From Verrucomicrobiota bacterium (GTDB lineage: Bacteria; Verrucomicrobiota; Verrucomicrobiia; Palsa-1439): a stretch of DNA of 64,000 bases. Positions within the stretch are counted from its first letter, which is position 1, and every line of letters starts with the position of its first letter. Shown in pieces: positions 29,540-56,349 of this stretch. The notes below the pieces were generated by a model. The model was given only the letters and a program-made list of their open reading frames with translations. It searched no databases and was not told the DNA's origin. The stretch is taken from NCBI GenBank assembly GCA_003152315.1, contig PLZV01000033.1, positions 39,689 through 103,688 of the forward strand, written 5' to 3'. The translations under genes and the position numbers were made by a program.

Positions 29540-30048
29540 GACCTAGAAGTCGAATAGCATAGTATCGAGATGCATGCAATCGTGAAACTGCAGCACTGAG
29601 CGCTTTGGGGAAAGATTGGATGTCACTGAGGAGTCTAGAGCGCCGTGACTACAACGGGGGGAATAGGACGATTATACCGGATGGGACGGATGGGGCTGGG
29701 GCAGTTTAGGTCGGTGGTTTGGAGGATTCTCGCAATAGAGATTTTTTTTGTTTCCGCTCTGGACATCGTATTCCGATAGTGGTATGATGCGGGAATGAAC
29801 AAATTAACGTTCAACATGAAACGCTCAACCCCGAAAAGGATTCGGGGCAGGCCGTCCAACGTTCATCCGCCTTCGCCAAGGCTTCCGCCGTCGCTGGAGC
29901 TATGGCGGACAAGTCGGCGGACTCGCTGCTGTGCGCAGCTCGGGGCGGCACGGCGACAGAGTCCCGGTCTCGGAACCGTGGATGCCGCCGAATGGCGGCA
30001 CGCCGTGGCTACAGGGGACAAGGGTTGAAAGAGATGTGCCATTCTACG

Positions 30049-30164
30049 AAACGAACCCATTTCGTTTTCGAGGAATTATTCATGCATCCTAGCAATGCAG
30101 AGCAACTTATGACGTTTGCAGAGTCGTTTGCAAATGGGTTCGTTTTCCAGAACGAACCCATTTT
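30049..30164. repeat. Composite inverted-repeat element, unit 1
   Basis: AAACGAACCCATTT (30049-30062), 69-nt spacer, AAATGGGTTCGTTT (30132-30145), then local palindrome to 30164. Confidence 0.85.
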
Positions 30165-30190
30165 GAGGGGGTATGAGGTCACAAATGGAG

Positions 30191-30282
30191 ACCTGCGGTC
30201 GAATTAAAGTGCGCGGTCGGGAGACCGGCGCACAACCGGGGCGATTTCGGCGCGGCGGCAACCGGGCCGGTTGCCCTACAAT
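30191..30282. repeat. Double-hairpin repeat, copy 1
   Basis: gtgcgcggtcgggagaccggcgcac and ggcaacc-gggcc-ggttgcc; near copy at 30607-30692. Confidence 0.8.
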
Positions 30283-30315
30283 GGGAGCCAAAGGGGGCCC
30301 CTATATGTTTTTGCG

Positions 30316-30431
30316 AAACGAACCCACCGTTTTTTGAAGGATTTTCCTATGGAAGTAGCTATGAATAAACGCGTTAGGGAAGAAACAGACGAGGGAAATC
30401 GGTGGGTTCGTTTTGGAAAACGAACCCACCG
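30316..30431. repeat. Composite inverted-repeat element, unit 2
   Basis: AAACGAACCCACCG (30316-30329), 70-nt spacer, CGGTGGGTTCGTTTTGGAAAACGAACCCACCG (30400-30431). Confidence 0.88.
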
Positions 30432-30606
30432 GGAGGGGTTTTTAAGAGGGCCGGAAGCGATATTTGGCGGAAAATGGACCTGAAATGAGAAGCAGAAGAG
30501 ATCGGGAGAGCGGTTCACGGCGGAGATTCCTCGACAAGTCCCGCAATCCTGCGGGATCCCGTCGCACGACGGGACTCGGAACGACGGGCTTAGCGATCGA
30601 CAGAGG

Positions 30607-30692
30607 AGACCTTCGGTCCAATGAAGTGCGCGGTCGGGAGACCGGCGCACAACGGAGGCACGGCGGCAACCGGGCCGGTTGCCCTACAATCG
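30607..30692. repeat. Double-hairpin repeat, copy 2
   Basis: gtgcgcggtcgggagaccggcgcacaac...ggcaaccgggccggttgccctacaat. Confidence 0.8.
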
Positions 30693-30748
30693 GACTTTGG
30701 CAAGACGGCAAACGGGACGTTCGCCCTACGAATCCAATAACAGGCGGG

Positions 30749-31966
30749 TTATTTGGGGAGGTCGCGCGCCAAGGTTTCGTAGCGGTCGATGACCTGGCGG
30801 ACGAAGTCGCGTTTTTCGCTGTAGGTGCCGGGGAAGAAGCTGCCTTTGAAACCGGCGATGACGACGTTGCGGAGTTCGCGCGGGGTCATTTTGAGTTTGT
30901 CGATGGCGAGGCGGAGTTCGTGGGTGACGGAGGTATTGGACATGAGGCGGTTGTCGGTGCAGATGGAAACGGACAATTCGTGGTCGAGCATCTGGCGCAG
31001 GGGATGGTGCGCGAGGTTGCGCATGCGCGGGAGGGTCTGGGCGTTGCTGGTGAGGCAGACTTCCATGGTAATGCGCTGGCTGGCGACGTACTCGGCGAGG
31101 TGGTGGACGTATTTCTTCGGGTCGGTGATGGCAGGGTCCTCGATCATGTCGTGGGCAAAGAGCCAGGTGCCGTGGCCGATGCGGTTGGCGTAGCATTTGG
31201 TGATGGCCTGGAAGATGGACTCGGGGCCGTAGGCTTCGCCGGCGTGGACGGTCTTGCGGATGAAATGGTTGTGGACGTACTGGTAGGCGGCGGTGTGATC
31301 GTCGGCGGGATAACCCGCTTCGGCGCCCGCGAGGTCGAAGCCGACGACGGGCAGGCCTTTGTTGTGGGCGAGGTCGACGGCGGCGCGGGCGAGTTCCATC
31401 GAGGCGGCCATGCAGACCTGTTTCGAGGAGGCGTAGGGCATGACGTCGAAGAGGCGGCGGTAGTACGGCGAAAAGACCGGCAAGATGAAGCGCAGCGCGC
31501 AGACGATGATGCCGAAGTGGAACGGAACGTCGGCGCCGGTGCGAACGGCCTTGGAGAGATTGTGGCGTTTTTGCGCGCGACCGAGACCGCGGCAGACGGC
31601 GGTGACGACCTCTTCCATGTTGAGGCGGTCATTGATGTGCAACTGCGGCGCGTAGCGGACTTCGATGTAGCGGACGCCCTCGGCGAGGTTGTCCTCGGCC
31701 AGTTCGAAGGCGATGCGCTCGAGGCTCTCGGCGGTTTGCATTACCGCGCAGGTGTAGGCGAATCCCTGCAGGTACTCGGGGAGGTGGGCGTACGTGTCCT
31801 TGAACACGAGGCGGCGCAGTCCGTCCTCGGTGTACGACGGCAACTTGACGCGATGGCGCTTCGCCAATTCGATCAAGGTGGGAATCCGCAGCGAGCCGTC
31901 GAGGTGCAGATGCAGGTCGGTCTTCGGGATGCGTTGGAGGAAATCGGTGGGTATGGTCTTGTTCAT
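30749..31966 (-). CDS. add: Adenosine deaminase
   Basis: PKTDLHLHLDGSLR, VVGFDLAGAE, HAGEAYGP, RIGHGT motifs. Confidence 0.9.
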   Translation of the reverse strand: MNKTIPTDFLQRIPKTDLHLHLDGSLRIPTLIELAKRHRVKLPSYTEDGLRRLVFKDTYAHLPEYLQGFAYTCAVMQTAESLERIAFELAEDNLAEGVRYIEVRYAPQLHINDRLNMEEVVTAVCRGLGRAQKRHNLSKAVRTGADVPFHFGIIVCALRFILPVFSPYYRRLFDVMPYASSKQVCMAASMELARAAVDLAHNKGLPVVGFDLAGAEAGYPADDHTAAYQYVHNHFIRKTVHAGEAYGPESIFQAITKCYANRIGHGTWLFAHDMIEDPAITDPKKYVHHLAEYVASQRITMEVCLTSNAQTLPRMRNLAHHPLRQMLDHELSVSICTDNRLMSNTSVTHELRLAIDKLKMTPRELRNVVIAGFKGSFFPGTYSEKRDFVRQVIDRYETLARDLPK

Positions 31967-35128: not shown

Positions 35129-36124
35129 CTACGGCAACGGCTTGCCTCCCACTTTCCCGCCAAGGCGCCGCATCGCCACTTCCTCGCCCAGGTTCAGCAC
35201 ATCATTAAAATACTGCACCATCTCCGTCTCCGTCGCCACATCCACCGCGTCGCGCTCGACCGCCGTCATCAACGCCTTGATCTCCTCCCGCCGCGAATCC
35301 AGTTCGACGTTCCGCATGGAAACCTCCGCGCCCGTCTGCCCTTCCACCCCCGCCGCCGTCGCCGCGCGCTCCACCGTCTCCCCCACCAACTCCGTCAGCA
35401 AATACATCGGCCGCTCCTGCATCGCCCGCGCCACCCCCAACAAAAACGGCGCCGCCGCCTTCTCAATCGGTTGCTCCGTCAACTCGCGCGCCATGCCGAC
35501 CGCTATCGTATCCGGCGCGAACCCCAGGCGCCGCGCCGCATAAGGCGAATACCCCGCCGCTTCCAACAAACGAATCCGCGCCCGCGCCGCCTCGCCCGCG
35601 TAATCGCGATAATGCGCCGTCCCCGGCGCCGGCAACTTCAACTCCGCAAACCCTTTCGACTCCCACTGCAACAATCTCAACTCCACCAGCCACGGCACCG
35701 CGTTGCCCTCGTCCTTTTTCTCCACAAAATGCAGCAACGGCAGCGCGACATCCTCGTCCCGCTGCTGCGCCGCCACGCACGCATACCGCAACGCCACCGC
35801 CACATTCGACCCGCTCGCCGCCAACGCCGACTCAAAGAGCGTCCGCTTCACAGTCCAGCCGCCCATCAACTCCGCCGCGCCCCATACCACCTGAAAATCA
35901 TTCGTCGCCTGCAACGCCGTCCGCTGGATCAACCCCCGATCGATCTGCGTCACCTTCATCAACTCCGCCGTCTGCAACTGACCCGTCGCCCGCCGCGCCC
36001 AATCCACCCGCCGAAAATCCTCATAAGTCGGCAACCCCTGCCCTGAACTCTTGGCAGTAAGAGCCGAAAACCCCAACCCGAGAACTCCAATAACCACCAA
36101 CAGTTTTTTTACGAATGTCTTAAT
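35129..36124 (-). CDS. Hypothetical secreted protein; start uncertain (ORF runs upstream into a repeat element)
   Basis: Signal-like KTFVKKLLVVIGVLGLGFSALTAKSSGQG; the upstream extension KLGSFSKTNPILRG is encoded by repeat unit 3. Confidence 0.55.
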   Translation of the reverse strand: MKTFVKKLLVVIGVLGLGFSALTAKSSGQGLPTYEDFRRVDWARRATGQLQTAELMKVTQIDRGLIQRTALQATNDFQVVWGAAELMGGWTVKRTLFESALAASGSNVAVALRYACVAAQQRDEDVALPLLHFVEKKDEGNAVPWLVELRLLQWESKGFAELKLPAPGTAHYRDYAGEAARARIRLLEAAGYSPYAARRLGFAPDTIAVGMARELTEQPIEKAAAPFLLGVARAMQERPMYLLTELVGETVERAATAAGVEGQTGAEVSMRNVELDSRREEIKALMTAVERDAVDVATETEMVQYFNDVLNLGEEVAMRRLGGKVGGKPLP

Positions 36125-36240
36125 GTGTCGCCCTTCATAGTAGCGCGGGCAGCTTGGCCTTCGTAGCGTCCTGCCCTGCACCCCAAAAACTTGCCAAAAC
36201 AAACCCAGTTTTCCATGAAACCGGCCCCAAATACCCCTTA

Positions 36241-36356
36241 AAATTGGGTTCGTTTTGGAAAACGAACCCAATTTTTTTTGCGATTTCAAGATTCATAAGT
36301 CCCTATCAAATAGGTGGATACGCTTCCATTTTTGAGAAATTGAATTGGGTTCGTTT
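36241..36356. repeat. Composite inverted-repeat element, unit 3 (opposite orientation)
   Basis: AAATTGGGTTCGTTTTGGAAAACGAACCCAATTT (36241-36274), 69-nt spacer, AATTGGGTTCGTTT (36343-36356). Confidence 0.88.
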
Positions 36357-36609
36357 CGCAGAATCATATATAGGCCCCTCTTGGCCCTCGATGACGGCCT
36401 CGGTGGGGACGCACTGCCGCGCGTCCGCGCCTGCCTTTCGCCCCTTGCCCTTCGTGCCAAGCTGTCCATCTCTTATATCATACCACTATCGGAATCCGAT
36501 GTCCAGCAGAATCGCATCGCCGTTGGTAGCCGCCCCTCCGGTGATTTCTGACTTGTTGCGCCCTCTCCGGGCTGTCAGGATACGTCTCACGGAAGGACTG
36601 GTCATCACT

Positions 36610-37272
36610 ATGAAACACACCCGTCTCGTTCGTCTCGCCGCACTCCTCTTTCTCACAGCGGCCCTCCACGCCAGCTATGCGGCAGAACCCGCCAACGTAA
36701 CCGCCGACGAGGCCCTCGCCCGACTCAAGGCGGGCAACGAACGCTTTGTCACGGGCAAGCTCATCCACCCGAACGTGGGCACCGATCGTCGCGCCGAGGT
36801 CGCCAAGGGACAAAACCCGTTCGCCATCATCGTCGGCTGCTCGGACTCGCGCGTCGGACCCGAGGTCGTGTTCGATCAGGGTCTCGGCGATATCTTCGTA
36901 ATCCGCACGGCGGGCAACGTCGTGGATGATGTCGCCCTCGGCAGTATCGAATACGCCGCCGACCATTTTGGCGTGCCGGTGATTCTCGTGCTGGGACACA
37001 CCCGCTGTGGAGCCGTGTCGGCCGCAGTCGCCGGCGGCCAAGCACCGGGACACGTCGCCTCCGTTGTCGAGAAGATCAAACCCGCAGTAGACGAAACCAA
37101 GGGCAAACCCGGCGACGCCGTGGACAACGCCGTCCGCGCCAACGTCCGCCACGTCGTCAATCAACTGCGCAACGCCACCCCGATTCTCTCCGCACTGGTC
37201 AAGTCAGGCAAACTCCGGGTCGTCGGCGCGTGCTACGATCTCGACACCGCCCGCGTCGACTTGCTGGAGTGA
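36610..37272 (+). CDS. Periplasmic beta-class carbonic anhydrase
   Basis: Signal peptide MKHTRLVRLAALLFLTAALHASYA; CSDSRVGPEVVFDQGLGDIFVIRTAGN, GHTRCGA. Confidence 0.93.
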   Translation: MKHTRLVRLAALLFLTAALHASYAAEPANVTADEALARLKAGNERFVTGKLIHPNVGTDRRAEVAKGQNPFAIIVGCSDSRVGPEVVFDQGLGDIFVIRTAGNVVDDVALGSIEYAADHFGVPVILVLGHTRCGAVSAAVAGGQAPGHVASVVEKIKPAVDETKGKPGDAVDNAVRANVRHVVNQLRNATPILSALVKSGKLRVVGACYDLDTARVDLLE

Positions 37273-55441: not shown

Positions 55442-55710
55442 GACGCTACTCACTTTATCGTGCGCCAGACTACTGAGCAAGTCGCAAACAACGCCGGTAG
55501 TGTCCCAATCCGACAGGGCTTCGTAGAGAGACCCAGGTGACGCAGGCGCTTTGGCGGTAACGCCAGCTTTCTGCGGCAAGCGGAGCGCAGCACTGGCTGC
55601 GCAATACGCGGTGAGATTCCTTTTTTTGCCGCAACCGACTCGCGCCAGTGAAGTTCCTGACGCAACTGATACGCTACACGCCGTACTTCCGCAACAAACG
55701 CCGCGATGTT

Positions 55711-55825
55711 GTTTTCGCGGAAAACGAACCCGAATGTAGCCTTCCCTTTTGCTAGCCATATGTGATTTCGCCACAATGACTTAACCCCTGTTTGGCGAGT
55801 GAAATAATTCGGGTTCGTTTCGCAG
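55711..55825. repeat. Composite inverted-repeat element, unit 4
   Basis: AAACGAACCCGAAT (55722-55735), 71-nt spacer, ATTCGGGTTCGTTT (55807-55820)CGCAG. Confidence 0.85.
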
Positions 55826-55965
55826 AAACACATGTTTTTGCGGCCACATCCTCCCCCAAAAAACGACGCACTCTCCTCTCCCATGTCAAAGAACTGGGCT
55901 GAGAATACCCCTCTCAGCACACCGTGTCCAGCAAAAATAATCGCTTGCCGATATACAAGTGGAAT

Positions 55966-56271
55966 TCATTTCCGAATGCATCCGCTTTGCTGTGTCGAGT
56001 GGTCGGTCGCGCAAGGCCAAATTATCGAAAGAAACTTCACAACCTCGGACTCAAATACGAGTAGCGACTTGAGCAACTCTTGTAATACGGTCGTCAACTT
56101 GGCGGCAGCTCGGTCTGGTTGTTTCATCAGCTTGCGTTTAATCGCGTCGAGCAGGCCGAGTTCCTTTGTTAACAGAGAGAGCTTACGTCCGACATCTAGA
56201 ATCGAAACTTCAGGGGTCGTAATAGTTTCCTCCAATGCGACCGGGACCGTCACTAAGAACATCTCCGTCAC
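55966..56271 (-). CDS. Hypothetical protein
   Basis: 101-aa ORF, plausible helical composition. Confidence 0.35.
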   Translation of the reverse strand: MTEMFLVTVPVALEETITTPEVSILDVGRKLSLLTKELGLLDAIKRKLMKQPDRAAAKLTTVLQELLKSLLVFESEVVKFLSIIWPCATDHSTQQSGCIRK

Positions 56272-56349
56272 GTCATATTATCGAACAATTTAGCCTCCAG
56301 CTTGTTGACGACGCCACTCGCCTAGCAGAGGTGCCGACGACTTTACCCG

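What the first reader, a model, noticed from the sequence alone, without database searches (positions are those of the whole stretch)
30049..30431. Composite inverted-repeat elements with constant spacer and co-varying arms (units 1 and 2 of 4)
Each unit has one arm (gcGAAACGAACCC+NNNN), a 69-71 nt spacer and a reverse-complement arm that is itself part of a local palindrome (GGGTTCGTTTTggAAAACGAACCC). Arm ends differ between units but always match within a unit: CATTT/AAATG (unit 1), CACCG/CGGTG (unit 2), CAATT/AATTG (unit 3, 36.2 kb), CGAAT/ATTCG (unit 4, 55.7 kb). Fixed spacer length with unrelated spacer sequence plus compensatory arm changes argues for selection on a folded DNA/RNA structure or a hairpin-based copying mechanism, REP/BIME-like. 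No RAYT (TnpA_REP) is encoded in the window. The element also creates the in-frame peptide FxKTNPI/FxNEPI in overlapping ORFs, a pattern I recall from PVC genomes but cannot verify here.
Basis: seen in the sequence. Interest (0 to 1): 0.8.

Follow-up and report, generated by a model that had tools for sequence, protein, structure and literature searches.

The report
Genus-wide three-arm hairpin repeat family
The finding is real: these ~115-base elements, each with matching inverted ends around a middle of almost fixed length, occur in well over a hundred copies in this bacterium and in its two sister species; they behave like an old REPIN-type mobile repeat whose parts are swapped between copies, but the enzyme that spreads them is not identified.

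Summary
Confirmed and much larger than described. The window holds four units; the genome holds at least 150. Outer arms AAACGAACCC+NNNN pair over 14 bp and enclose 69-71 nt; total length stays at 97-99 nt in almost all copies. Two other species of the genus carry the family (one with different arms, AAACGAAGCC or AAACAAACCC); eight genomes of other genera in the family have none. Covariation is strong but confined to the outer stem, with almost no G-U pairs and no interior helix, which points to DNA rather than RNA. Spacers are not unrelated: they form subtypes with shared motifs. Similar copies (80-88%) sit between unrelated flanks, so the unit was once copied to new places; nothing sampled is recent. 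In a 120-kb collinear region all three units of the sister species lie in intervals that also hold a unit here, yet at two of three the interior differs as much as random pairs and the arm types changed. The family is therefore a mosaic that exchanges parts. It resembles REPINs/BIMEs, but no RAYT is tied to it and no GTAG or CGTC tag is visible, so I do not file it as a REPIN. Mobiliser and function stay unproven.

The parts
30035..30048 (+). unit 1 left module (TGTGCCATTCTACG)
   Evidence: conserved left end in family alignment
30049..30062 (+). unit 1 arm 1 AAACGAACCCATTT
30063..30131 (+). unit 1 interior, 69 nt, TTTGCAG subtype
30132..30145 (+). unit 1 arm 2 AAATGGGTTCGTTT
30150..30163 (+). 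unit 1 third arm GAACGAACCCATTT, palindromic to arm 2
   Evidence: fold
30302..30315 (+). unit 2 left module (TATATGTTTTTGCG)
30316..30329 (+). unit 2 arm 1 AAACGAACCCACCG
30330..30399 (+). unit 2 interior, 70 nt
30400..30413 (+). unit 2 arm 2 CGGTGGGTTCGTTT
30418..30431 (+). unit 2 third arm AAACGAACCCACCG
36260..36356 (-). unit 3 core (97 nt, AATT arms); orthologous interval in sister species G002 holds an ACCG-arm unit
36242..36255 (-). unit 3 third arm
55722..55820 (-). unit 4 core (99 nt, GAAT arms), no full third arm

Best explanation
The units are an old, genus-specific family of non-autonomous short interspersed elements. Each is a left module, arm 1, a 69-71 nt interior and arm 2, usually followed by a third arm. 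SHOWN: many copies; near-fixed length; stem-only covariation; copies with similar interiors but unrelated flanks; shared sites with switched arm and interior types; mosaic combinations of modules. INFERRED: an enzyme, most plausibly a single-strand (HUH/Y1-like) transposase that reads the inverted arms as a hairpin, once copied the unit into intergenic DNA; the fixed length reflects the geometry it needs. Since then copies have mostly been inherited in place and reshuffled by recombination or gene conversion between copies, with break points in the shared arm sequences; this also keeps the arms of one unit alike. No host function is required by the data.
For: At least 150 (G000), 130-133 (G002) and 59-88 (G001) model hits, with 0 in the 8 other genomes of the family. 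Length 97-99 nt in 144 of 151 units. Stem: 95.7% of cells paired, 213 double-change cells against 62 shuffled and at most 54 slid; no interior helix by covariation or folding. Pairs with 0.79-0.88 identical interiors have random-like left flanks (0.45-0.58). The third arm equals arm 1 in 91 of 122 against 38 expected. Orthologous sites hold units whose arm types changed in all three arms: L030/L195, L023/L184, L094/L139, window unit 3. Collinear C38/C41: all 3 G002 units lie in intervals that hold a G000 unit, with interior identity 0.75, 0.52 and 0.45 against a random baseline of 0.54. One of these keeps interior, arm 2 and third arm while left module and arm 1 differ.
Against: No excision, insertion or transposition was seen directly, and no copy in the sample exceeds 0.88 interior identity, so activity is not shown. 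Y1 transposases are not tied to units: the single Y1 gene of G002 has no full unit in the 16.7 kb fetched around it, and related Y1 genes occur in genera without units. Units lie nearer to the gene on their third-arm side (99 of 132), which a purely selfish model does not predict. Shared sites could also be insertion hot spots.
Confidence: 0.55

Rival explanations
1. Cis-regulatory or DNA-architecture element: a host protein binds the inverted arms and the interior motifs upstream of genes, and selection on that function keeps length and position.
For: Never inside a called gene; nearer to the right-hand gene in 99 of 132 (p=7e-9); same-direction context 45 ++ against 21 --; right gene + in 96 of 132, p=7e-4. 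Kept at orthologous sites. Interior motifs conserved (53 bits in G001, about 28 in G000 and G002).
Against: Interior and arm type switch freely at shared sites; four of seven units of C38 have no counterpart in G002; no shared gene class was looked for or noticed. Gene calls are from a home-made codon score.
Confidence: 0.2
2. REPIN proper: REP doublets mobilised by a RAYT (TnpA_REP) of this genome.
For: Inverted doublets with fixed spacing, compensatory changes and variable spacer match the published description (PMC3116915). The genome has 11 Y1_Tnp matches, two above the NCBIfam REP_Tyr_transpos cut-off; six have a unit within about 3 kb. In G002 a half-unit lies about 0.5 kb from the only Y1 gene.
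Against: Unit density is about 1 per 16-20 kb, so this proximity is near chance. No Y1 gene is flanked on both sides by arms. No GTAG or CGTC tag. Similar long Y1 genes occur in genera without units.
Confidence: 0.15
3. Family of small structured RNAs or alternating-hairpin attenuators (arm 2 pairs with arm 1 or arm 3).
For: Arm 2 can pair with either neighbour; the predicted single-strand fold of units 1-3 prefers arm 2-arm 3; whole units fold better than shuffles (mean z -3.5).
Against: G-U pairs in 7 of 1834 cells; interior unfolded; no Rfam match; third arm missing in 27 of 150 units and in direct, not inverted, orientation in G001.
Confidence: 0.07
4. Invertible promoter: a recombinase flips the 70-nt interior between the arms.
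For: Inverted repeats around a short segment, often upstream of a gene.
Against: Interiors of similar units keep one orientation relative to the flanks; the top reverse matches go back to mis-oriented units.
Confidence: 0.03

Closest known systems
REPINs (REP doublets forming hairpins) of Pseudomonas, PMC3116915
   Same: Inverted conserved ends at fixed spacing, variable middle, compensatory changes, many intergenic copies, persistence in lineages
   Different: No RAYT linkage, no GTAG tag, a third arm, interior subtypes with conserved motifs, module exchange seen at orthologous sites
BIMEs (bacterial interspersed mosaic elements), described in PMC3733652 and PMC8266576
   Same: Mosaic of inverted palindromic repeats in intergenic DNA
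   Different: Unrelated sequence; one dominant architecture of near-constant length
TIR repeats / TIRtrons with TIRYT transposases, PMC3733652; subclass 2.1 TnpA in PMC6006769
   Same: Short elements with terminal inverted repeats; long Y1 genes that look like this class are present in the genome
   Different: No Y1 gene is flanked by these arms
MITEs such as RUP, ERIC, NEMIS (listed in PMC3733652)
   Same: About 100 bp, inverted ends, no coding capacity, next to genes
   Different: Length almost invariant despite about 50% interior divergence; no transposase with matching ends found; duplicated target site not tested

Membership tests
REPIN | two REPs in inverted orientation with conserved spacing | tested here: met
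   97-99 nt in 144 of 151; pattern matches 100-104 nt only, though 88-118 was allowed
REPIN | compensatory changes in the paired ends | tested here: met
   213 double-change cells against 62 shuffled
REPIN | RAYT gene flanked by the same REPs | tested here: not met
   no Y1 gene flanked on both sides; the G002 Y1 has no full unit in 16.7 kb around it
REPIN | GTAG or CGTC tag at the REP foot (GTAG-/CGTC-tagged superfamilies) | tested here: not met
   by inspection of alignments: no such tetranucleotide is conserved at the arms
MITE / TIR element | terminal inverted repeats and unrelated flanks of similar copies | tested here: met
MITE / TIR element | autonomous transposase element with the same ends | tested here: inconclusive
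   no arm pair around a gene noticed; most left ends without a partner are a half-unit subtype or third-arm matches; not every transposase family was searched
MITE / TIR element | target-site duplication or precise empty site | tested here: inconclusive
   unit 4 lies in a 905-nt stretch absent from G002, much larger than the unit; no empty site of unit size found
structured non-coding RNA | covarying helices with G-U pairs, known family | tested here: not met
invertible promoter | interior found in both orientations | tested here: not met

The most novel reading that the evidence does not exclude
The arms act as exchange sites: the ~70-nt interiors are cassettes replaced in situ at fixed chromosomal places by a dedicated recombination system of this genus, so that related species keep the sites but carry different cassettes, with the arm ends re-matched after each exchange.
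Probability: 0.12. Interest if true: 0.8.

Novelty: new variant of a known kind. Interest (0 to 1): 0.5.

Why it matters
REPIN-type families are explained by their RAYT partners; a family of the same design, more than a hundred copies strong, without a tied RAYT, and with sites that persist while arms and interiors are swapped, separates dispersal from maintenance and makes the question of what keeps such repeats alive testable by comparing sister species.

Tried and rejected
RAYT link by proximity: near chance, and absent as full units in G002. Invertible promoter. Structured RNA. Integron attC resemblance: rejected by eye, no R-box consensus in the arms. Named relatives by one collection scan: only three stray hits. 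An early arm-mismatch count was mis-indexed and is replaced. Literature searches found no description of this family; the library holds open-licence papers only. One model build failed on structure length.

Full report
Observation. The two units lie where stated and two more lie at 36.2 and 55.7 kb. In the own genome (4.89 Mb) the palindromic arm pair occurs about 67 times with no match for the reversed control, and the asymmetric unit pattern 111 times. A covariance model built from 84 units scores at least 150 places in the own genome (the tool scored no more), 130 in sister species G002 and 59 in G001; with a model that includes G001 the last rises to 88, and eight genomes of other genera of the family give none. 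The window and contig C38 give one unit per 16-20 kb, i.e. roughly 240-300 per genome by extrapolation.

Anatomy. From left to right: YATRYG-TTTCTGCG (containing GTTTC-TGC-GAAAC, which can form a mini hairpin), arm 1 AAACGAACCC+NNNN, 69-71 nt, arm 2, a gap of 2-5 nt, and in 122-123 of 150 units a third arm that makes a palindrome with arm 2. Conservation stops near -18 on the left and fades about 40 nt after arm 2 on the right. The arm-to-arm length is 97-99 nt in 144 of 151 units.

Stem and interior. On 131 units of three species the 14-bp outer stem has 95.7% paired cells and 213 cells changed on both sides (62 by shuffling, at most 54 when slid); seven pairs change on both sides, including C-G to G-C and G-C to A-U. 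Only 7 of 1834 cells are G-U or U-G. By general knowledge, helices selected as RNA pass through G-U often; its near absence suggests that both arms are recognised as DNA or are copied from each other (inference). Interiors show no covarying helix and fold no better than shuffles (mean z -0.33), yet they carry shared motifs (TGTA, AG..GTTA) and fall into subtypes.

Dispersal. Copies with 79-88% identical interiors have random-like left flanks and random-like tails beyond 40 nt, apart from one local duplicate: the unit was copied to new places. None in the sample is closer than 88%, so the copying is old.

Sites and exchange. G000 contig C38 and G002 contig C41 are collinear over about 120 kb at 76-92% nucleotide identity. 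This pair was chosen by gene position and not by unit content. All three G002 units in the collinear part lie in intervals that hold a G000 unit; four of the seven G000 units have no counterpart and lie in G000-specific stretches, unit 4 in a 905-nt one. At the shared sites the interiors are 0.75, 0.52 and 0.45 identical against a random baseline of 0.54 +/- 0.07. In unit 3 all three arms changed; in unit 2 arms 1 and 3 changed fully and arm 2 reads AAAT. At the third site interior, arm 2 and third arm are kept while left module and arm 1 differ, leaving arm 1 and arm 2 of the G002 unit unmatched. Further pairs from stretches chosen around units show the same: L030/L195 keep the interior (0.79, no gap) with arms ATTT to AATT in all three places. 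Modules are associated but not locked (Cramer V 0.23-0.59). This is what recombination or conversion between copies would leave; independent insertion into hot spots remains possible.

Context. Of 132 units none lies in a called gene; 99 are nearer to the gene on the third-arm side; same-direction contexts are 45 against 21. The gene calls come from a simple codon score, so distances are approximate.

Sister species G001. Same design with arms AAACGAAGCC, AAACAAAGCC or AAACAAACCC and a stronger interior motif (TTGAGGGACAA..GTTAG); its third arm is often a direct repeat of arm 2.

Mobiliser. Eleven Y1_Tnp matches exist; of the nine proteins scanned, all hit the NCBIfam REP-associated tyrosine transposase model, two above its cut-off. 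Six of the eleven have a unit within about 3 kb, close to what density gives; none is flanked on both sides. G002 has one Y1 gene and no full unit in the 16.7 kb fetched around it, only a half-unit about 0.5 kb away. Published REPINs and TIR repeats are tied to such genes (PMC3116915, PMC3733652); here that test fails, so I say it works like a REPIN, not that it is one.

Limits.

Noticed in passing
L026:2407, L029:2311(-), L173:6186, L183:10874, L188:9859: Half-units: the same left end (TTTTGCGAAACGAAC) followed by CCCCCAGTTAAG and no right arm; one lies about 0.5 kb upstream of the only Y1 transposase gene of G002, another beside the unit orthologous to window unit 2.
   Followed up: partly
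window 29541-30800 and G002 stretches: A promoter-like repeat GGACATCGTATTCCGATAGTGGTATGATG, 2 copies in the window and 13 in 1.12 Mb of G002; a TATGAT box with a -35-like GGACAT 16 nt before it.
   Followed up: no
window 29900-30700: Other short palindromic intergenic repeats (GGTCGGGAGACCGGCGCAC; CAACCGGGCCGGTTGCCCTACAA; CTGCTGTGCGCAGCTCG) packed around the units, also present in G002.
   Followed up: partly
window 55443-56347: A 905-nt stretch holding unit 4 is absent in sister species G002, where the aminotransferase start and the neighbouring oxidoreductase gene abut.
   Followed up: partly
window 35129-36289(-), 36154-37272(+), 29902-30207(+): ORF predictions run through the units and gain KTNPI/NEPI/KRTHF peptides from the three frames of ACGAACCCA; start codons near units are probably mis-called.
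   Followed up: yes
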